DNA from: Paramacrobiotus metropolitanus
Lineage: Eukaryota; Tardigrada; Eutardigrada; Parachela; Macrobiotidae
Direction of reading: 5' to 3'
Assembly: GCF_019649055.1 (NCBI RefSeq)
Contig: NW_026570233.1
Location: forward strand, 62,001 to 126,000
DNA length: 64,000 bases
A program made the translations under genes and the position numbers. The notes under the pieces were generated by a model that had not been told where the DNA came from, searched no databases, and saw only the letters and a list, made by a program, of their open reading frames with translations. This document shows, piece by piece, positions 26,111-62,967 of the stretch (the first letter of the stretch is position 1; the number at the start of each line of letters is the position of its first letter).

Positions 26111-27092
26111 TTATCGATAAAACGTTGCCGCGCATGGGGGGTGGATTTTATTAATAAAATCCGTGGTGGACGAATTTGTCCACCGGAAACGAACAAACAA
26201 CTGCACTGTAACCAACAACTGCATAGCGCAAACGACAAACGAACGCCTGCACAGGGCAGGTACGCCTCCAAACCCCCAAATCACTCCCGCGATCCGACTG
26301 CTGCCATACATTGCGCGAATTCCTCTCGTCTGCGATTATCCAAAATGACATATTTCTTATAACATCTGCTGCCCCAATTGCCTTGCGCTTTAATTACCGC
26401 TGCCGATGCTCCGAATTTGGCTGCTGCTGTGGCGCCTCCTCGCCGAAACGAATGCGTGGATAACTTACTGCCGTCGATTCCGGCATCTGCCAGCGTTTGC
26501 TTTAAACAACGGTTGAACAAATGAGACGTCATGGCCACCATCTGCCCGGCTGACCGGTACGATAGAAGCGGGTCGTTTCCTTTCGCTTTCGTTGTCGCTA
26601 ATAATACGTACTTCCACTGCGGTTGCTGGACACAGTACACTGTTGCTGCTCAGTTTTGGAACAACTACATGTACTTCCGCGCCCGCGTAGCGGTTGCTTT
26701 TTAGCGCTGGCGCTGATATTTGCAGCCCCATCTCGATGCGCTGCACATTCAAAACTTTAACATGCGTACTGCCCTTTTTGAACGAACAAAACAAATTGGA
26801 TGCCCGCAATAAAGAAAAGAATGTCAATAAGCCAGCGGCCCAGAAGGCCTTCCTGCGTGCTGCCTGCACTGCATGCAAATGCTTGTGGATAGTTAACAAC
26901 AGGTCCACATCTACTGCTGCTCGCTTGTTCGGCAACTCCTCGCGGAGGCGCTGAACACGTGCTAATGCTTCCTTTACTGCAAAATGCGTTAGATCTGGCG
27001 CCGCCATGCTGTGCTCATGGTGAAGAGAAATTAAACTGCTGACATAATTCTGATTTGTTGTATGCTGCAAACTGCGTGCAAGCTCTGCTATA

Positions 27093-27099: not shown

Positions 27100-29323
27100 G
27101 GTTCCAAGCTGGATGACCATAGCGGACCCTTTTGCGAAGCCATTGCCTCTGTACTGACGCTGGGATTACAAGGCAAGGTACCCGCTGACATACGGCCGAT
27201 ATTCTTTGGAGGTCGACTACTGGCGTTGCGCAAGAAAGACGGCGGACTGCGCCCCATAGCGGTAGGACTGTCGTTGCGTCGTCTACTAGCCAAAATCATC
27301 TGTAGCAGAATAGCGGACCGGGCTACCGCTTTGCTTACTCCTCATCAGTCTGGCTTCAACGTTCGGGGGGGAGCCGAGGCCATCGTCCACGCAACTAGAC
27401 ATTTCCTACAGTCGAAACCTGAGAGCATTAAAGCACTGCTAAAGGTTGACTTTCGCAATGCCTTCAACACTGTATCCCGTGAAGTGGTTTTAGATGTTGT
27501 GCATACACACTTTCCTGAATACGATGAATTCTTTTGGTCGGCGTATGGGCATCATTCTTCTTTGTTCATTGATCAGACAGTGCTGTCGTCTGAGTCAGGG
27601 GTACAACAAGGCGACCCGTTGGGCCCGCTGCTATTTTGCCTGGCCTTGCTTCGTGTAATTGCCACGCTGAACACAGAATTTAACGCCTGGTACCTTGACG
27701 ACGGAACCCTGGGCGGTACGCCGGCGTCAGTAGCGGAAAACTTCAGACGGGTTATCGAAGGCGCGCATGCTATCGGCCTGGACATAAACGAGTCTAAATG
27801 TGAACTATTTGTATCAGGAGGAACCGAGGATGAGCGGCAGGAAGTTGTTGACGATTTCGTTTTGCACCACCCACAACTTCGTGTTATGTCCAGCTCAACT
27901 TTAACCCTGCTAGGCGCCCCGGTCCTGGACGACGCGATTGGTGATACCCTCGCTGAGAAATCAAGCGCCATAAATACAGCCTGTGAAAGGCTACAACTCC
28001 TTCCCCGCCACCATGCTCTGTATCTTCTCAGATACTGTTTAGGCGCCCCGAAGATAATTTATGTGCTCAGATGTTGCAATGCCTGGAAACATCCTAAACT
28101 GCTTTATCAAATCGATGAGTCACTGCGTACATGTTTTCAAGAACTTAGTAACGTTCGGGTAAACCATGACGACTACCCTGGCTGGCGACAAGCGACTCTT
28201 CCGGTCAGTCGAGGAGGTGTCGGCATACGTCGTGCGGAGGAATTAGCACTCTCAGCCTATTTGGCTTCGATTCACTCCGTATCTGATTTGCTATTGTCGA
28301 TACTGCCTCACCTTCCGGCAGTGAACGCCTCGGAAGCAGTGGAGTTGTGGAAAACCAAATCCCATTTAGCAGAAGTCCCTGAAGCTGGCATGCGTAAGCT
28401 CCAAAAGACATGGGATTTACCGCTTTGTAATGTGTCGGTCTCTATTTTATTGGATTTGTTTCGCGGTGACATCGTAAATACAGCCCGCTTTCTTGCGCAG
28501 TCCCGTCCCGAAGCCGGTATTTGGTAGAATGCGCTTCCTACCGCCCACATCGGCAACCTCCTTGACGACGAGACTATTAAAATTTCGATCGGCCTGCGTC
28601 TTGGAGCGGATATTTGCGAACCGCATAACTGCACCAAATGTCAGAAGCACGTTGATAAGTTAGGACACCATGGTTTATCATGCACCTACTCGGCCGGTAG
28701 ACACGCGCGCCATGGAGGATTAAACAACATTATATGCCGGGCTTGTGTTTCAGCCGGCGTTCCCGCTAAGCTTGAACCACGCGGTACATCCTCCACTACG
28801 GACCAACGCCCTGATGGTTGTACAACGTTTGCTTGGAAAAGAGGAATGTGTTTGGCGTGGGATGTGACGTGTGTCGACACAATGGCCCTTTCTCACATAC
28901 CGTCAACTTCGGTTGCGGCCGGAGCTGCTGCAGCGCAAGCAGAAGACAGAAAGTCCAGACTGTACGAGTATCTGGTGGGACGCTACATCTTTTCCCCGAT
29001 CGCATTTGAGACGATGGGACCTTGGGGGCCGGCGGCTATCGCTATTGTAAAAGAATTGGGAAAGAGATTGCAACAGCACACAGGAGAGCGTCGCACGCAT
29101 GAATTTCTGCGTCAACGACTATCGCTGGAGATTCAGCGCGGAAACGCGGCATCCATCCTGGGCACGATGGAGGGAGTGGATAGTTTAAATGAAGTTTTGC
29201 TGTTGTAAAGAATATTGCATGTTTCTTTTCTGTACCAGAACTATGTGTTAGTATACACTTGCGACTGATGCATGTCCTTCCATATTTGTACATTAATTAT
29301 TCAACCACCGGTAAATAAAGGTC
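27100..29323 (+). mobile_element. 5'-truncated non-LTR reverse transcriptase element with C-terminal endonuclease-like domain
   Basis: An open frame runs from about 27095 to 29208, broken only by a TAG at 28525-28527. It begins inside the reverse transcriptase palm/fingers region (PADIRPIFFGGRLLALRKKD), with motifs KVDFRNAFN, GVQQGDPLGPLLF and the catalytic YLDD, then LTLLGAP. After the stop the same frame continues with a Cys/His cluster (CEPHNCTKCQ...HHGLSC), a basic RHARHGGLN segment and RPDG...WDVTCVDT. The last matches the PD-(D/E)XK pattern of restriction-like endonucleases of R2/CRE/NeSL-type LINEs. Missing N-terminus and flanking 7-bp ACTACAG duplications indicate a target-primed insertion that was truncated at the 5' end. 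AATAAA lies near the 3' end (29313); there is no poly(A) tail. Exact family is uncertain. Confidence 0.75.
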
Positions 29324-54376: not shown

Positions 54377-57371
54377 AAATTAAGCAAGTAAATTAATCTC
54401 CTACGAACGGTACGGTAAGGTCAATCCAGCATGCGATATGACGCTGATTTTCACTTACGTATGTTGTTGTAAAATATTTCAAACCAAAAGTAGCTTTAAC
54501 AACAAGCCAAAGTACAATCGATTCCGGTACAATAATGATGAAGCGTGTATAGTGTATCGTAATGGTTTATGTCTACATGTTCGTGCCATAAACAACTTTA
54601 CACATAACTGCCGCTCATTAGTAGCCCATTAAACAGTGCAACCGGTTCACTTGATTACCGGCATTTTTCCTCTTTCTCTCCTGAAGGCCAAACGTAAAAC
54701 GGCCATTCACACACTACACCGTACAGGTGCATGTACACGTAGTTGTATAAGCGCCCACAACAGGAACCACCCTTGACAGGCTTATCGGACATTTTTTGTG
54801 TACACTGGACTAATGCGCACTATACATGCAATTTAGCCGCGTGCAGATGCGCAATGGCACGCAGATGGCCATTAAGCCCAGCGTAGCATGACGATCACGC
54901 AAACGGCCCGGCCTCCGGCCGCCTCGCAGCCACTACAGAACACAGGACCGCCTCCACACCAAGCAGGCTCCACTGCTCAATCGATCGGCTAGTTGTGTAT
55001 AATGCCTGTGCACATCGAGCGATAAACAAGCGCGGCCTGGACGTGCACAGCATACGGCGACCAGACATTTTCAGTTGTTCTGTTTTCGCGCTTGATGCCA
55101 CCACCGCTGACAACTGCATCCCACCACACTGACAACGCCACTACGCAGCACTTGACGGTGCTCTTTGTTCAAGCGGATTGTTTGCCGACCACGGATCGCT
55201 TTACCGGCTGCGCTGTTGTGACAACGACCGTTGGACAACCGGAAGTGCATACTCAAGGTAAGACGCTGCATGACAATGCATGCTAATTTTAAAAAGGGTA
55301 ATGTGTAATGTTATTAAAGAGATCGGTTTCGTAAAGGAATTTTGCCGGTATAATGGGAAATATTAGCCGCGGGATTTGTCAACGCTCGGCTTGTCATGCC
55401 GAGACAGATTATATGACCAGCACACATTTTACGAGTCAAGTCTCATGTTTGTTTTAACAAGCTTTACTTGTCCAAAAGGAAATTATGGTTTATTTACCAA
55501 CTGCCATGAGATACATATTGCATCCAAATGGTATAACGTCTGTTTATTTTATCACAATATCGCTTTTCACGTTGACGCGTTGGCCGCACAGTTAATTTGC
55601 TGTCCTGACATGCTACGGGATGTTTGAAAAGGAAAACAGGGTCATATTATGCATACCGTGTCAGATTGCACATAGATAGCATTGTACATTATTTAGGCAG
55701 TAGCTTTTCAAATGCATCTACCATGACACCGTTACATGGCCGAACGGCACGCTAAATTATGCATAATCGAAAAATCTGTGTAGAATATGATTTCTAAGAG
55801 GAAAAAACCTGGAGCATATTAACAGCTTAAACGTAATGCAGTAATGAGGTGGTTTCCAGCAAAAAAAATGCCGGATCAATGGCGTAAACAGATTCTTCAT
55901 CCCGCTCCCAGAAATAAATCTTCCCGCCCTGTCTTTGCCGATTTACGTTCACGGCATGTAAATTCCCGATCGATAACCGGGCGCCTGCATTTTCTCTTCC
56001 CTACTGCGCAATTAAAGATGTTTCTCAATTCTCCTGTATATTTTCACTGGATGCACGCTAGGTGCAGCATGCACAGCGGCATATTATAGTGGCCAGACAT
56101 CCAAATGATCCGTCCAACGGGATGTTGATGCTTGGTCACGACATTGCCTTATCGATTTTCCCCCCAGAGAGTCCCTATGGTTCCGGGTGCAGATGATTGT
56201 GAAGGATGCAAATAGGGCGAAATAGGGACAGGCTGTCTGGGATGGGAGATTGGCTGTGGAAATGTTTCCCTACCCGGTTACAATGTGCCGGCACATGCAG
56301 ACACGCCATCAATATCAAAACCTACGCCGTATAAACTGCAGTGAATGCACACGACCTACCAGTCTACCACTGCACACTCTGCACTTTATATACATATAGT
56401 GCAGTAAATGTTGCCAAAGAAAAGTTTTTACCTATGCGATAGGATATTTTACAACCCAATCAAGCGTTGAGAAATAATTCACCGGTGCGGAATCGTTAAT
56501 TCGGCGTTCTGTTCTGTGTATGACGTTTACGATGGTGATGACCAGCGCTGCAGTGTAGCGTAGGTGTAGTTGTAAGTCAAACTTTTATGGGCGAATCAGT
56601 CAAAATCATACAATACATTGCAATGGAAATCTGCAGTACTCGTATAATTCACCTGTAGCGCAAAATCATGGATGATTACATTACTACCTTCACTGTATTA
56701 TTTTATTGCAAATCATTCAGAGACTCTAGTTTAGATACAATATATCGTAAACCTATTTAAGTTGCACAATAACGATTCGTGACAGCACTGTGAAAGTTTG
56801 TTCGTTAAAGCGTTTTTAAGTTTTATCAGATTTAAAATGAATTGGCAAAACTTTGCGTGAGCTTTTTTAATTTTTTAGGTCCTATTTTTTAGCTTTTTAA
56901 AATCATTCCTTTTCCGGTTCACAGAAAAAAAGCTAAAAATTCCTTGGCAACAACGTCCATGTGGCTTGTCGTGGGGTTTTACCGCTTCCCAGACCATCCA
57001 CAATATTTTGTACCGTCCAAACAAAAATGTTTGGCAAAACTAATTTATCTTACATGGCTCGATAAACCATCGCTGATCAATAATTTCTTGTAGTTTATTT
57101 CCCGTTAATGGACTGATTTACACAGGAATGGTTATTGATTTATCGGGCCAGAAGTCGGCCATAATGATGTCAGCTTTTTTGCGCATGCGTGCCTGTAGTT
57201 GCCAGCGGTCTAACGCAGTGTCTCCCCAGTGTGTTGCAAAAAGTAATACATTACTTTTTTATGTACGACTAGTCACTGCAATCAATAAACGAGTGAAGGA
57301 GCAATGAGGACCACTCAGCACTTGACACTGACGAATGACACTCTTTTTGTGGTTACAGCATAAACAAAGAA
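54377..57371. other. Upstream region of the MscL gene, no confirmed gene
   Basis: No coding gene I can confirm. About 54890-55290 is GC-richer, with an open frame ending at a good donor (AAG followed by GTAAGA at 55259). It could be an upstream untranslated or coding exon. About 56090-56330 looks like unique regulatory-type sequence with an octamer ATGCAAAT near 56208. An NRF1-like GCGCATGCG lies near 57181. A probable 3' splice site (GGTTACAG, ending at 57359) lies just 13 bases before the MscL start codon. Confidence 0.35.
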
Positions 57372-57947
57372 ATGGCCGAAATCCGTGAACGCACCAAGAT
57401 TGTGGGCGGCAAAGCCGTTGCCAAGGTGGAGGGCTTCTTCGCCGACTTCAAGAACTTTATCAACCGCGGCAATGTGGTGGATCTGGCGGTGGGTATCATT
57501 CTGGGCGCGGCCTTCGGAGCCATCGTCCAATCCCTGGTCAACGACATCTTCAGCCCGATCATCGGCTTGGCGGGCAATGCCGCCCTGGGTGACCTTTTCG
57601 TCATCATGCGCTACGGCAACGCCAATGACAGCGCCGCGGGTGCCACCTACCCGACGGTCCTGAAGGCCAAGGAAGCCGGTGCCATCACACTGAACTACGG
57701 CAACTTCATTAACACCATCATCAACTTCCTCATCGTGGCATTCGCCCTGTTCCTCTTCATTAAGGTCATCTTCCTCTTCAAACGCAAGGAGGTCGCCAAG
57801 GCCCCCTCCACTGATTGGCCCTGCCCCAAGTGCAAGGAGCTGGTAAAGGAGGGTGCAATTCGCTGCCCGCATTGTACGGCCGAACCCATCGGCCCGGTGC
57901 TGAAGTACGTGGATGACATCAATGAACCGCTGCTGAGCAAGGCTTGA
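57372..57947 (+). CDS. mscL: Large-conductance mechanosensitive channel, bacterial type, with zinc ribbon
   Basis: 191 aa in one exon. MscL opens under membrane tension and releases solutes during hypo-osmotic shock in bacteria. Residues 32-49 (RGNVVDLAVGIILGAAFG) are the nearly invariant N-terminal/TM1 pore core of bacterial MscL. TM1 spans about 34-60, a periplasmic-type loop 66-111, and TM2 about 112-135 (NFLIVAFALFLFIK). A charged KRKE follows TM2. The N-terminus is about 18 residues longer than in E. coli. A C-terminal CPKC...CPHC zinc ribbon (C151, C154, C165, C168) replaces the usual helical bundle, as in some bacterial MscLs. No frameshift. Good context ATG (AAAGAAATGG). Flanked by animal-type sequence with a likely 5' UTR intron and poly(A) signal: an apparent horizontal acquisition. 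Target membrane cannot be read; no clear targeting peptide. Confidence 0.93.
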   Translation: MAEIRERTKIVGGKAVAKVEGFFADFKNFINRGNVVDLAVGIILGAAFGAIVQSLVNDIFSPIIGLAGNAALGDLFVIMRYGNANDSAAGATYPTVLKAKEAGAITLNYGNFINTIINFLIVAFALFLFIKVIFLFKRKEVAKAPSTDWPCPKCKELVKEGAIRCPHCTAEPIGPVLKYVDDINEPLLSKA

Positions 57948-58278: not shown

Positions 58279-58284
58279 AATAAA
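58279..58284 (+). terminator. Poly(A) signal of the MscL gene
   Basis: AATAAA 330 bases after the stop codon, following T-rich 3' UTR-like sequence; a eukaryotic type of 3' end. Confidence 0.5.
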
Positions 58285-58576: not shown

Positions 58577-58900
58577 TATTATAGGGGGCAAAATCAAATG
58601 TGTTCCACCGTTTCCGGCTACTGCTGATGTTAGCCTGCTGGTGGTTTATGTTGTGGCTGGGCAGCGTTTCATGTCCAGCGATGCTGTTAAGGTTGGGTGG
58701 CATTGACGGTACATGTATGATGTGGTATTAGCTACACTAGGCTTACAGTTACAATATACCTCAATTTTACTGCAGTTTACCTAATGTATCTGTACGTACT
58801 TGTAAACGTAGTTGATGTTTTATGTAAACCACCAGGCTCGCATCAGTAGTAGCCGGAAACGGTGGACCACGTTTACTGTAGTTTTGCCCCCTATATGTGT
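58577..58900. repeat. Inverted repeat pair (MITE-like)
   Basis: Arms of about 70 bp (58577-58650 and 58825-58900) start at TATAGGGGGCAAAA and contain CCACCGTTTCCGGCTACT, with a 175-bp spacer. Possible TA or TATA target duplication. A 106-aa minus-strand frame at 58383-58703 overlaps the left arm and is probably not a gene. Confidence 0.65.
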
Positions 58901-59261: not shown

Positions 59262-60377
59262 TCAGCTAAAGGGTTTACCTTTTCTCTTGTCAGCTGACGC
59301 ATAACAATCAGTTTGTTCGAACTTCGAACCGTTTGGGAACGCTAGCAGAACAATAGCTAGTATGAAAAACATCTTCGAAGATTGTTGGTGAAAAAGCATT
59401 ACCTCACGCGTTACTCTAAAGACGGTTTCCACAAGGACTAGCAGCATCCAGAAAGAGGAGATTACGTGAAAGTAAAACAGTATTTCAGCTAAACAATCGT
59501 ACATTAAATGGGCGAGGAACACCCGACACCATAATGCCGCCAATACAAACAGAGTACCCATCAGGAGAGTGATTAACAGGAGCGATACGGCTTGACTCAA
59601 CAGTGCCAAGCGTTCGTCGGATGCTTCGTCATCAGCTCGAAGCAGTGCTGCCGATTGAGTGAAGCTGTCTGACGAGATCCTCCGGGAATTTTTCATGAGC
59701 TTAATTTCAGTGTCCAACGCGACGTTTAGGGATTGGGTAAATTCCACATCAGTATCACACAAATGGATGCAGAGTAACAATATCGGCAAAATAACCATCT
59801 CGTTCAGAAACACTGCACTGTACGTGTACCATACAATAAACCCTTCTGGCAAAGCGAAAACAAAATACTTGCCAACATTCCACACTTTGTGACCTTTGAC
59901 ATAAAATGCGGTGTTATAACCGGCCAAATAGCGCAGAATGAGTACTGTAACGTGGATAACGATAAAGAAGAAAACCGGCTTTCGCATCGAAGATGTATGG
60001 GTTCTGTGCACAGTGGATAGATAGTCGGTGACCTTGTGAAAATAACCAGGCCACATAATGGCCAGAAGAACGGCGGCTGCACGGAGGCCTTTAGTCTGAC
60101 TGATCCCAAAGGCCAGATTGGTGATGATTGGACTGTTGTAGCCGGTGTGCTTGGAAAAGTATCCGCCGCTGGCATCGATCCAGTCACCGAGGTCGATTGC
60201 TACGTAGACCAGGATAAATCCCAATAAAATACACCGCATAATTGTGACGCATTGCTGCAGGTGCTGCTTGCAAGGAGATGGTGCAAGGCGCTTGCTTTCG
60301 AAAGGATTAGACTGTGCCAACCAATATGTATAGAATCTACACTGCTGACACTGTCCAGGCAAATCCACAGCGCCCAT
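59262..60377 (-). CDS. Multi-pass membrane protein, possible chemoreceptor-like
   Basis: A single long frame of about 371 aa from the ATG at 60377; the frame stays open slightly upstream. It has about seven hydrophobic spans: CILLGFILVYVAIDL, AAAVLLAIMWPGYF, PVFFFIVIHVTVLILRYLAG, FVFALPEGFIVWYTY, MVILPILLLCIHLC, SLLLITLLMGTLFVLAALW and FWMLLVLVETVF, with an eighth near the C-terminus. A charged Ser-rich intracellular-type loop (KNSRRISSDSFTQ) lies in the middle. There is no DRY or NPxxY motif, so it is not an evident class A GPCR. The architecture and size recall invertebrate gustatory-receptor-like proteins, but the diagnostic TYxxxxxQF motif is absent. An upstream exon is possible. Confidence 0.55.
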   Translation of the reverse strand: MGAVDLPGQCQQCRFYTYWLAQSNPFESKRLAPSPCKQHLQQCVTIMRCILLGFILVYVAIDLGDWIDASGGYFSKHTGYNSPIITNLAFGISQTKGLRAAAVLLAIMWPGYFHKVTDYLSTVHRTHTSSMRKPVFFFIVIHVTVLILRYLAGYNTAFYVKGHKVWNVGKYFVFALPEGFIVWYTYSAVFLNEMVILPILLLCIHLCDTDVEFTQSLNVALDTEIKLMKNSRRISSDSFTQSAALLRADDEASDERLALLSQAVSLLLITLLMGTLFVLAALWCRVFLAHLMYDCLAEILFYFHVISSFWMLLVLVETVFRVTREVMLFHQQSSKMFFILAIVLLAFPNGSKFEQTDCYASADKRKGKPFS

Positions 60378-61660
60378 GTTTTCCGTTGTCGAAGGGCCGG
60401 AACATCGAAGAGGAGCACTTGTCAATTACTTCAGTAACAAATTAACAATCCCTAATAAAAAAATAAGCGACTCGCATTTCCATCCTCATAATATATATTA
60501 AACCTGCATAAGACCAATAAACAGTCAATTTCGACACCTCAAGAAACAAGCTGTAATAAATACGGATAAAGTAAGGTGCGGTTCGATGCCGCAAAAAATT
60601 CAGATGATCCAATGCGTCCGTCGGGACTCTTGTTGCCCAACGATCCAGGCTTCCTAAAGCCCAAATGGTGACGTAACTTTTGATACAATATTGGTTTCAC
60701 CATTTTATATGCAGTATTGATGTGTCACCAATACTGTTTGACCAGTTATTGATTGTTCTACAAGTTTTTTTTAGCTTTTATTATCTGCTTTTATTACTAA
60801 ACCTTGCTCATAAAGGACCACACATTAGAGCGTTAAAAGATAAGCAGAAGTGTAATGAACTTGACCAACCACTTCGCTCCGTTAATGGATTTCGTTCCAC
60901 CATTTTGACGGCATACGAACGCTAGTGTTTGTGCAATATCTTCTTCAGAGCCGACGTGCTTTGTGTTAGTGTTTATTTGTCACGCTAATTTGCACGCCCT
61001 CGAAGAAGACTTACGGAGCACGTCACTGTTGACCTTTTATAAGTCGGATCCATTTTACAGAAAGGCGCATCTGAACTGATGCTTAAAGTGCAAGGAATGA
61101 ATTTACTGTATGAATCAATAGTAGCATGTTTTACGCTAGGGTGGCCTTAACCAAAACACTACATTCTCCTCACGTGAGTCTTGATCTTTTGTCATTGGTT
61201 ACCTAACAGATGCTGGCCTAACATCCAAAAGTGTTATTGAAATGTCGATAAAAATTCGCCTCGCAGTGACCCGGCTTCCAGTTCTTTATTATTATTTCGT
61301 TCAGTGGTTGCGATAAATGGCTAACGCAACTCCCGGCCCACCTGTACCGAAACCTGAAGGAGATCACGCCAGTCGTAATTCTGAACGAGCCATACAAAGG
61401 AAATCTGCGATAAATCACGGCATAATCACGTTGGACAAGTGCCCTTGAATGGGGCCACAGATGTCGCGACTCATTTAACTTGTGCCTCGAAATAAAGGCA
61501 TTCCCTTCCAGAAAAGAGAACACGTAAACAATTTTTCATCACGTAAGCGGAGCTTTACTAAACGTCCTCAATCGCTGCTTGACACTTTTGGGATAAAAGG
61601 CATAAACACAGACGCGGGTTTAGTGTCCTGCAAACTACAAGAAAACTACATAAATGCAAA
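60378..61660. other. Intergenic between divergent membrane-protein genes
   Basis: Holds the upstream regions of the minus-strand multi-pass protein and the plus-strand GPCR. An 81-codon plus frame at 60680-60925 has no recognisable domain. Nothing else seen. Confidence 0.35.
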
Positions 61661-62967
61661 ATGTGCAACTTTAACATGGAAAGCAAAATCAACGTAACGT
61701 ACTCCAATATTACCCAACCAGCTTGGACAGTTTACGAAAGGTCGTTATTGCTGTGGAGTATCTTGTCATTACTCCAGTCTTACCTAGGCACTTTTTTCTT
61801 CGTAATACTGATTTGGGTGATGATGGAAGTCCGTGAATACAGCAGCGCGTCCGGTGTCTTACTATTACACACCGTCATCGTGGACACCACAGTGTGCGCT
61901 GTACATTACCCCATGAATATCTTGACCATCTTCCTCAACGGCCGCTATCATATACTGAGTCCAAAATACTGCCCGGTCGTTGGATTTTTCATGACGATCT
62001 TTAATGCGGTGACCTTTGACAACAACGCTTGTTTGGCAATTAATCGTTTTGTGGCTATTGTTTTTCCGCATCATTATAAGAAATGGGCAACGAAACGGGC
62101 AGTTGCGTTAATGGTAGGTTTGAGCAAGCGGTCTCACGTATGCACATAATATAACTATAGACTTTTGGTTAAGCTTGTATGTTTTACGTTATTCATATTT
62201 TACATTAAACAATTTGAATTTCTAAAAGAAAATGAATCGTCATCTTAGAAAATCGCAAGTATACTTTGTGTTTGGTATACAATATTGGCACTGTACTTCT
62301 AAACTTGCGTACCTTGCGAAAATGTAAGCGCATTACTCTGGACGGTTGCAGATAGGCGGCGCGTGGCTCCTGACCTTTAATCTCTATACACCCCCCTTCT
62401 CTTTGAAATTGGTGGCTCATACGGCTTGTCAAAGCCATGGAAGGCATGTGGATTTCATGTCCATCCCAGCGATCCAAATGCGCGCTTCTATCCTTTGGTC
62501 ACATCACTAGCAGGTCATATTCCGAATGGTACGCAAATGGTCCTATACATCGCCATCCTCGTCAAATGCGCTTATACATCCCGCAAGACTTCAATCGCGG
62601 AAAGCTCTCTGGATCAGAAGTTTCAACGACGGCGGCAAATGGCATACGCGCTCTTTGGTTTTTCCTTGTGGAATTTTCTCTGCTTGTATCCGTTACTGAT
62701 CCTGGGCGCTTTCGATATGGCGGCCTACCGACAGAATCCCATGCTGAATTTATACGTCCGGAACGTCAGTTTGTCGGCGTATACCGTATCACCAGTAAGA
62801 TAAAAACTGCTCTTCCCTTCTTTGCTATTCAATGACACTTTGAGTAAGCGATAAATGTTGACATTTCATGGCAGATTATATTGTTGGCTCTCAACGAAAG
62901 ATACCGTGAGGCTGCTACGGCAATCGTGAAACGAATATGGTGCGTGTTGACTTCGTCACACAGTTGA
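61661..62967 (+). CDS. Rhodopsin-like (class A) GPCR, 3 exons, one apparent base missing
   Basis: Exons are 61661-62113, 62352-62794 and 62875-62967. N-glycosylation sites (NVT, NIT) precede TM1 (SYLGTFFFVILIWVM). TM2 follows, then TM3 with CLAINRFVAIVFP, where NRF replaces DRY. TM4-5 are IGGAWLLTFNLYTP and NGTQMVLYIAILVKCAY, TM6 is MAYALFGFSLWNFLCLYPLL and TM7 is SAYTVSPIILLAL, where SPIIL replaces NPxxY, followed by the usual NERYREA helix 8. Exon 2 is one base short: the frame changes at a C6 run at about 62388-62393 between TM4 and the second extracellular loop. With that base the protein would be about 329 aa. Ligand unknown. It is a pseudogene or an assembly error. Confidence 0.75.

What the first reader, a model, noticed from the sequence alone, without database searches (positions are those of the whole stretch)
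57372..57947. Intact bacterial-type MscL channel with zinc ribbon in an animal genome
The protein keeps the nearly invariant RGNVVDLAVG..GAAFG core of bacterial MscL and a C-terminal four-cysteine ribbon. It is uninterrupted, and it lies within DNA full of spliced animal genes and animal transposons. A probable 3' splice site lies 13 bases before the ATG and AATAAA follows, so it appears to be domesticated into a eukaryotic transcript. MscL is known from bacteria, archaea and some walled eukaryotes; I do not know of an established role in an animal. A tension-gated osmotic release valve would be of obvious use to an animal that swells and shrinks, such as one surviving drying.
Basis: partly seen in the sequence, partly recalled or inferred. 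Interest (0 to 1): 0.88.

Follow-up and report, generated by a model that had tools for sequence, protein, structure and literature searches.

The report
Tardigrade MscL channel of fungal-type kin
A water bear genome carries an intact gene for MscL, the pressure-relief channel usually found in bacteria, and its closest relatives appear to be in another water bear and some fungi, so it looks like a real borrowed gene rather than contamination.

Summary
Window 57372-57947 (+) encodes an intact 191-aa MscL (Pfam E 2.6e-35) with a C-terminal four-cysteine ribbon. It is the only copy found, 119 kb inside a 1.84 Mb contig of an assembly whose size and longest contig nearly equal the published Paramacrobiotus sp. 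TYO tardigrade genome. A repeat dispersed in that genome lies 0.65 kb downstream. Hypsibius exemplaris has three annotated MscL proteins (63-73% identical) on 373-907 kb contigs, which argues strongly against contamination.

The ribbon is not special: at least 45 of 80 bacterial loci have it. A direct bacterial donor is not favoured: trees place the tardigrade proteins with anaerobic rumen fungi and unnamed environmental sequences, sharing an STDWPCP ribbon found in 0 of 80 GTDB loci. By plain identity, however, bacteria (up to 56%) are nearer than those fungi (46-48%), and AU tests do not exclude separate origins.

Most likely this is a horizontally acquired, non-selective, tension-gated pore that may relieve swelling on rehydration. 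Gating, location, transcript and role were not tested. Codon composition (GC3 0.80) is an outlier among sampled host ORFs. None of the paper listings or passages I saw describes a tardigrade MscL.

The parts
57372..57947 (+). MscL coding sequence, 191 aa, single uninterrupted exon
   Evidence: only copy found in the genome by protein and by Pfam family
57372..57464 (+). N-terminal extension, residues 1-31: predicted helix whose second half is amphipathic (moment about 0.5) and holds F26 and F29
57465..57572 (+). RGNVVDLAVGIILGAAFG gate region and TM1 helix, residues 32-67
   Evidence: alignment to a solved MscL chain; model with mean pLDDT 82
57696..57797 (+). TM2 helix, residues 109-142, ending in the basic cluster KRKE (137-140)
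57807..57890 (+). W-type zinc ribbon STDWPCPKC-x10-CPHCTAEPI, residues 146-173 (C151, C154, C165, C168)
57359..57371 (+). possible end of the 5' UTR after a 3' splice-like site that ends at 57358
   Evidence: sequence and generic splice matrix; no transcript data
58279..58284 (+). AATAAA, candidate polyadenylation signal
58596..58874 (.). MITE-like element: 47-nt inverted repeat arms 58596-58642 and 58828-58874, 87% complementary; stretches of it match 31 other contigs of the same genome in the listed rows
59262..60425 (-). neighbouring ORF of 387 aa, gustatory-receptor-like by my reading only; three weak paralogous matches elsewhere in the same genome
   Evidence: no Pfam family
61583..62149 (+). 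rhodopsin-family GPCR exon

Best explanation
This is a native gene of a tardigrade, almost certainly Paramacrobiotus sp. TYO (P. metropolitanus). It encodes a member of the MscL family of tension-gated channels. Its lineage most likely obtained it horizontally from another eukaryote with a fungal-type MscL, before the split from the Hypsibius line. By family knowledge (recalled) five subunits form a pore: a membrane-lying N-terminal helix senses bilayer tension, TM1 tilts and opens a wide non-selective gate, and solutes leave the swollen cell. The four-cysteine ribbon would cap the cytosolic end in place of the helical bundle of the E. coli channel. Shown here: family membership, intactness, single copy, genomic residence, kinship with Hypsibius proteins. 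Favoured by trees but not proven: kinship with fungal MscL. Inferred: pentamer, gating, zinc binding, membrane location, use during osmotic swelling or rehydration, timing and direction of transfer.
For: Pfam MscL 2.6e-35; best solved MscL chain 1.8e-19. The gate core R32 G33 N34 V35 V36 D37 L38 A39 V40 G41 and the phenylalanines F26 and F29 before it align with that chain. AlphaFold2 monomer, mean pLDDT 82: N-helix, TM1, hairpin, TM2, ribbon strands. Three H. exemplaris proteins named by NCBI as putative MscL, 73, 69 and 63% identical, on contigs of 906,959, 373,103 and 598,910 bases. The gene is at 119,372 of a 1,839,722-base contig. A host repeat family lies 0.65 kb downstream. The assembly nearly equals the published Paramacrobiotus genome in total size and longest contig. 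Eukaryote-type rows against bacteria: 99/98 in 92 rows. Tardigrade plus unnamed plus anaerobic-fungus rows: 100/99.6 in 81 rows without the other fungi and two long bacterial rows, and 100/94.5 with the ribbon cut off. The ribbon motif STDWPCP (with small variants) is in 31 of 208 proteins; the 7 of these with an organism name are all eukaryotes (3 Hypsibius, 4 anaerobic fungi). It is in 0 of 80 GTDB loci.
Against: By plain identity the bacterial hits listed in the plain search (48-56%) are nearer than the named anaerobic fungi (46-48%). With all fungi in the tree, tardigrade group plus anaerobic fungi has only 78/89. AU tests do not reject arrangements in which the tardigrade group and the fungi have separate bacterial kin (p 0.077, 0.153, 0.199), nor all fungi as one clade with the tardigrade group outside (p 0.184). 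GC3 of the gene is 0.80, while all 75 ORFs of 150 aa or more in 200 kb of the same genome lie below (median 0.50, maximum 0.72), as do five tubulin exons (0.46-0.67) and five GTPase ORFs (0.45-0.56). This suits a later arrival or strong codon selection better than a long-settled ordinary gene. No expression data. No Ramazzottius protein is named in the listed hits, though I could not show that its proteome is in the database. The closest sister group (P0006, P0008-P0014) is unnamed.
Confidence: 0.65

Rival explanations
1. Direct transfer from a bacterium to tardigrades. The likeness to fungal MscL would be parallel descent from related bacterial donors.
For: In the plain search the best organism-named matches after Hypsibius are bacterial, 49-56% identical, above the named anaerobic fungi at 46-48%. 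Bacterial MscLs also carry a four-cysteine ribbon. AU tests of separate origins are not rejected.
Against: Tardigrade, unnamed and anaerobic-fungus proteins form one clade with strong support with and without the ribbon. The W-type ribbon is in none of the 8 proteins with a bacterial organism name among the 208 and in 0 of 80 GTDB loci. A clade of the tardigrade group with eight of its best bacterial hits is rejected, p 5.4e-5, but that test also forces those bacteria away from their own kin, so it weighs little.
Confidence: 0.22
2. Old vertical inheritance: MscL was present in the ancestor of fungi and animals and was kept by tardigrades while almost all other animals lost it.
For: The eukaryote-type clade holds named members of several fungal groups and a tardigrade.
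Against: No animal other than a tardigrade is named among the listed hits of two protein searches, so very many losses would be needed. Only the top 120 of each search could be seen.
Confidence: 0.1
3. Contamination or a chimeric contig: a microbial or fungal gene assembled into the tardigrade contig.
For: High GC (0.578 against 0.377 and 0.389 in the flanks) and high GC3. No read data could be checked.
Against: Three Hypsibius homologues on large contigs of another species. The single-copy upstream flank and the downstream flank with a host repeat are contiguous in a 1.84 Mb contig. The published assembly combines Nanopore and Illumina reads.
Confidence: 0.03
4. A resident but non-channel role: an MscL fold kept for an organelle membrane or as a scaffold through its ribbon, with no part in osmotic relief.
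For: Location and gating are untested. Eukaryote-type members share an N-terminal extension and a distinct ribbon.
Against: The gate core, TM1 and TM2 are conserved.
Confidence: 0.15

Closest known systems
Hypsibius exemplaris putative large-conductance mechanosensitive channels (P0003, P0004, P0005)
   Same: Same domain order, same STDWPCP ribbon with AEPI, 63-73% identity
   Different: Three proteins against one; P0003 has 39 residues before the window protein's start
MscL of anaerobic fungi (Piromyces P0121 and P0122, Neocallimastix P0131, Anaeromyces P0134)
   Same: MscL core plus STDWPCP ribbon and DPI, N-terminal extension
   Different: 46-48% identical to the window protein; an acidic tail after the ribbon; DLATGVVIG in place of DLAVGIILG in the gate
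Bacterial MscL with C-terminal zinc ribbon (for example P0057 Longimicrobiales, P0114 Zixibacteria, P0169 Deltaproteobacteria)
   Same: MscL core, four-cysteine ribbon, 52-53% identity for these three
   Different: No tryptophan before the ribbon, no (E/D)PI after it; P0057 and P0114 start near the core, without the extension
E. coli and Mycobacterium tuberculosis MscL
   Same: RGNVVDLAVG gate and two TM helices (in part recalled); solved MscL chains match
   Different: By recall they end in a C-terminal helical bundle, with no ribbon

Membership tests
MscL channel family (PF01741) | Match over the curated Pfam cut-off over nearly the full profile | tested here: met
   121.9 bits against 27.4, profile 1-116 of 123
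MscL channel family (PF01741) | N-terminal amphipathic helix, TM1 with RGN..DLA.G gate, loop, TM2 | tested here: met
   Alignment, helical moment and hydropathy, model of mean pLDDT 82; a structure search could not be run
MscL channel family (PF01741) | Homopentamer | not testable with these tools
   Only a monomer was modelled
MscL channel family (PF01741) | Opening by bilayer tension, large non-selective conductance | not testable with these tools
   Needs electrophysiology
Eukaryote-type W-ribbon MscL group (named here) | STDWPCPxC ribbon followed by (E/D)PI | tested here: met
   31 of 208 proteins match the W pattern and 31 the (E/D)PI pattern; 30 match both, the window protein among them (P0007 lacks the second because its frame leaves the family there, P0014 has NTEWSCP)
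Eukaryote-type W-ribbon MscL group (named here) | One clade apart from bacterial MscL | tested here: inconclusive
   100/99.6 and 100/94.5; 78/89 with the other fungi in; AU tests leave separate origins open
Horizontally acquired gene domesticated in the host | Resident in host DNA with a relative in a sister lineage | tested here: met
Horizontally acquired gene domesticated in the host | Host-like codon composition | tested here: not met
   GC3 0.80 against a maximum of 0.72 in 75 sampled ORFs
Horizontally acquired gene domesticated in the host | Expression as a host transcript | not testable with these tools
   No RNA data held

The most novel reading that the evidence does not exclude
Eutardigrades gained, from a fungus-like eukaryote, a working MscL emergency valve and have kept it, with three copies in Hypsibius. 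It would be the first MscL known to act in an animal, venting solutes when dried cells are flooded on rehydration.
Probability: 0.25. Interest if true: 0.85.

Novelty: new member of a known kind. Interest (0 to 1): 0.6.

Why it matters
MscL is the textbook emergency valve of walled cells; a review seen in passages lists its homologues as bacteria, archaea and fungi only (PMC4204436). A resident MscL in a wall-less animal that survives repeated swelling would test whether such a valve is compatible with, and useful to, animal cells. Cultured tardigrades make a knockout and a rehydration assay direct tests. If the fungal kinship holds, the shared W-type ribbon points to gene traffic between eukaryotes rather than from bacteria to animals.

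Tried and rejected
Zinc ribbon as a novelty: rejected. A four-cysteine pattern is in 206 of the 208 proteins listed by the two searches (chosen by likeness to a ribbon protein, so no census) and in at least 45 of 80 GTDB loci.

Viral carrier: a scan of IMG/VR with the eukaryote-type alignment gave 27 pattern matches and no relative.

The fungus Sorochytrium milnesiophthora as donor: its MscL (P0136) has a different ribbon and sits away from the tardigrade group. That it parasitises tardigrades is recalled, not looked up.

Host check by the neighbouring receptor-like ORF: the protein search found nothing, not even the ORF itself, so it could not show which tardigrade proteomes the database holds. 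Absence from Ramazzottius stays untested.

The trehalose-synthase family search, meant as a second check of species, did not complete. The Hsp70 search, meant for codon comparison, did not complete either. The test of the unnamed group as one clade did not finish.

Literature, all ten searches: tardigrade with MscL, 2 papers, of which one has no MscL in its main text and the other is on halophilic protists (passages); tardigrade with large-conductance mechanosensitive, 1 listing, on a bacterium; tardigrade, mechanosensitive channel, horizontal, 30 of 1183 listed; MscL with metazoa and gene transfer, 3 listed; Paramacrobiotus genome and horizontal, 20 of 48 listed; anaerobic fungi with mechanosensitive, none; MscL homolog in fungi and eukaryotes, 8 listed, three seen in passages; tardigrade osmoregulation terms, none; MscL with rotifer or nematode terms, 12 of 56 listed, MscL in none of the 12; Hypsibius with large conductance mechanosensitive, none. 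The main text of the Hypsibius-Ramazzottius genome paper PMC5531438 has no 'mechanosensitive' (passages). Supplementary tables of tardigrade gene-transfer papers could not be read, so the gene may stand in such a table.

Full report
What is there. Window 57372-57947 (+) is one uninterrupted ORF of 191 aa that matches Pfam MscL at 2.6e-35 and solved MscL chains, best E 1.8e-19. The conserved gate region RGNVVDLAVG and the phenylalanines before it are intact. An AlphaFold2 monomer from 75 aligned sequences has mean pLDDT 82 and shows an N-terminal helix 2-31, TM1 35-67, a small hairpin, TM2 109-142 and two short ribbon strands. A first run with 16 sequences gave 66. A structure search could not be run.

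Which genome. The window is contig C13, 62001-126000, of an assembly of 169,799,020 bases in 533 contigs whose first contig is 4,484,719 bases. The published Paramacrobiotus sp. TYO assembly has 170,483,395 bases, 684 scaffolds and a longest scaffold of 4,484,941 (PMC8277472, passages). I take it to be that genome, slightly trimmed; a second paper, on P. metropolitanus, also gives 170 Mbp (PMC11191345, passages). The contig count differs and no record name was seen.

Is it resident. The gene lies 119 kb inside a 1.84 Mb contig, with no N in the window. The 1,000 bases upstream match one place in the genome. The 1,313 bases downstream hold an inverted-repeat element (arms 58596-58642 and 58828-58874). 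The 80 rows reported for that flank include the flank itself and two matches within it; the others lie on 31 other contigs, and only 40 of 163 candidates were scored, so this is a lower bound. The window also holds a receptor-like ORF with three weak paralogous matches in the same genome, a GPCR exon, a BTB protein and a reverse transcriptase. MscL itself was found once. Three H. exemplaris proteins, named putative MscL by NCBI, are 73, 69 and 63% identical and lie on contigs of 907, 373 and 599 kb. Contamination would have to strike two species in the same way. Two unnamed proteins, P0002 and P0007, group with them and are counted as tardigrade below on that ground only. P0007's frame leaves the family after CPKCK and runs into unrelated sequence, which would fit an intron; its DNA was not seen.

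Kinship. The plain search lists 120 of 7089 hits, the profile search 120 of 7976. I used 61 of the 208 distinct proteins and 31 of 80 GTDB loci for the first tree. Group labels for unnamed rows rest on similarity: in the anaerobic-fungus group P0121, P0122, P0131 and P0134 are named and seven rows are not; among the other fungi P0145 and P0195 are unnamed. In the careful tree of 92 rows (bootstrap not fully settled) the eukaryote-type rows are one side of a branch at 99/98, the tardigrade rows at 100/94, tardigrade plus unnamed sisters at 98/97, and these plus the anaerobic fungi only at 78/89. Without the eight other fungal rows, P0135 and two long bacterial rows (81 rows) the last group has 100/99.6, and with the ribbon cut away 100/94.5 (bootstrap not fully settled).

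The W-type ribbon motif is in 31 of 208 proteins. The seven of those with an organism name are Hypsibius or anaerobic fungi; the eight proteins with a bacterial organism name and the six named from other fungi lack it. It is also in 0 of 80 GTDB loci, of which at least 45 have a plain four-cysteine ribbon.

Results against. By plain identity the bacterial hits of the plain search (48-56%) are nearer to the window protein than the named anaerobic fungi (46-48%); several fungal rows have long branches. AU tests do not reject fungi plus the nearest bacteria without the tardigrade group (p 0.077; anaerobic fungi alone p 0.153), the tardigrade group plus those bacteria (p 0.199), or all fungi as one clade (p 0.184). 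The clade with eight of the best bacterial hits is rejected (p 5.4e-5), but that test is partly unfair because it also breaks up bacteria. So kinship with eukaryotic MscL is favoured, not proven, and the direction is open.

Composition. GC of the gene is 0.578 against 0.377 and 0.389 in 1 kb flanks, and GC3 is 0.80. In 20 stretches of 10 kb, 75 stop-to-stop ORFs of at least 150 aa have median GC3 0.50 and maximum 0.72 (this set may hold chance ORFs and transposons). Five tubulin exons give 0.46-0.67 (five of eight fetched, the three with stops inside left out) and five GTPase ORFs 0.45-0.56 (five of six fetched, the one with stops inside left out). In the window the BTB ORF has 0.66, the GPCR exon 0.56, the receptor-like ORF 0.51. 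The gene is an outlier. Either codon selection is strong, or it came later than the Hypsibius copies from a related donor; the tree alone cannot exclude the second.

Transcript signals. A 3' splice-like site ends 13 bases before the ATG. It is within the best 33 of 3282 AG sites on this strand by a generic matrix, but three nearby sites score better. A short upstream ORF starting at 57304 would be removed if that splice is used with a donor farther upstream (sequence). AATAAA is at 58279. No RNA evidence was available.

How it most likely works. From established MscL knowledge (recalled): a pentamer, N-helices on the inner leaflet, tension-driven tilting of TM1 and TM2, a wide non-selective pore. 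The parts needed for that are present in the sequence. The ribbon probably replaces the cytosolic helical bundle. The use in rehydration is an idea consistent with the animal's life, without direct evidence. A role in drying would be weakened if Ramazzottius, a drying-tolerant tardigrade, lacks the gene; no Ramazzottius protein is named in the listed hits, but I could not show that its proteome is held.

Known or new. MscL is a known family. The H. exemplaris proteins already carry the name in NCBI. A review lists homologues in bacteria, archaea and fungi (PMC4204436, passages). In ten literature searches none of the listings or passages that I saw describes a tardigrade or other animal MscL; supplements and most subscription papers were not within reach. 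Hara et al. report 112 genes transferred after the split from Hypsibioidea (passages); whether MscL is listed was not checked.

Noticed in passing
window 58596-58874: MITE-like inverted-repeat element downstream of MscL; stretches of it match 31 other contigs of this genome.
   Followed up: partly
window 59262-60425 (-): Receptor-like ORF of 387 aa without Pfam match; weak paralogues on contigs C29 and C45 (L083, L084).
   Followed up: partly
P0121, P0122, P0131, P0134 and unnamed kin (proteins, no locus): Anaerobic rumen fungi carry a W-ribbon MscL; its free-living relatives and its source are unknown.
   Followed up: partly
P0006, P0008-P0014 (proteins, no locus): Unnamed environmental MscLs are the sisters of the tardigrade group; their organisms could not be named.
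   Followed up: no
window 26465-27070 (-) and 27226-28527 (+): A reverse transcriptase ORF (RVT_1) beside an ORF that looks like a tyrosine recombinase by eye (no Pfam hit), perhaps a DIRS-like retroelement.
   Followed up: no
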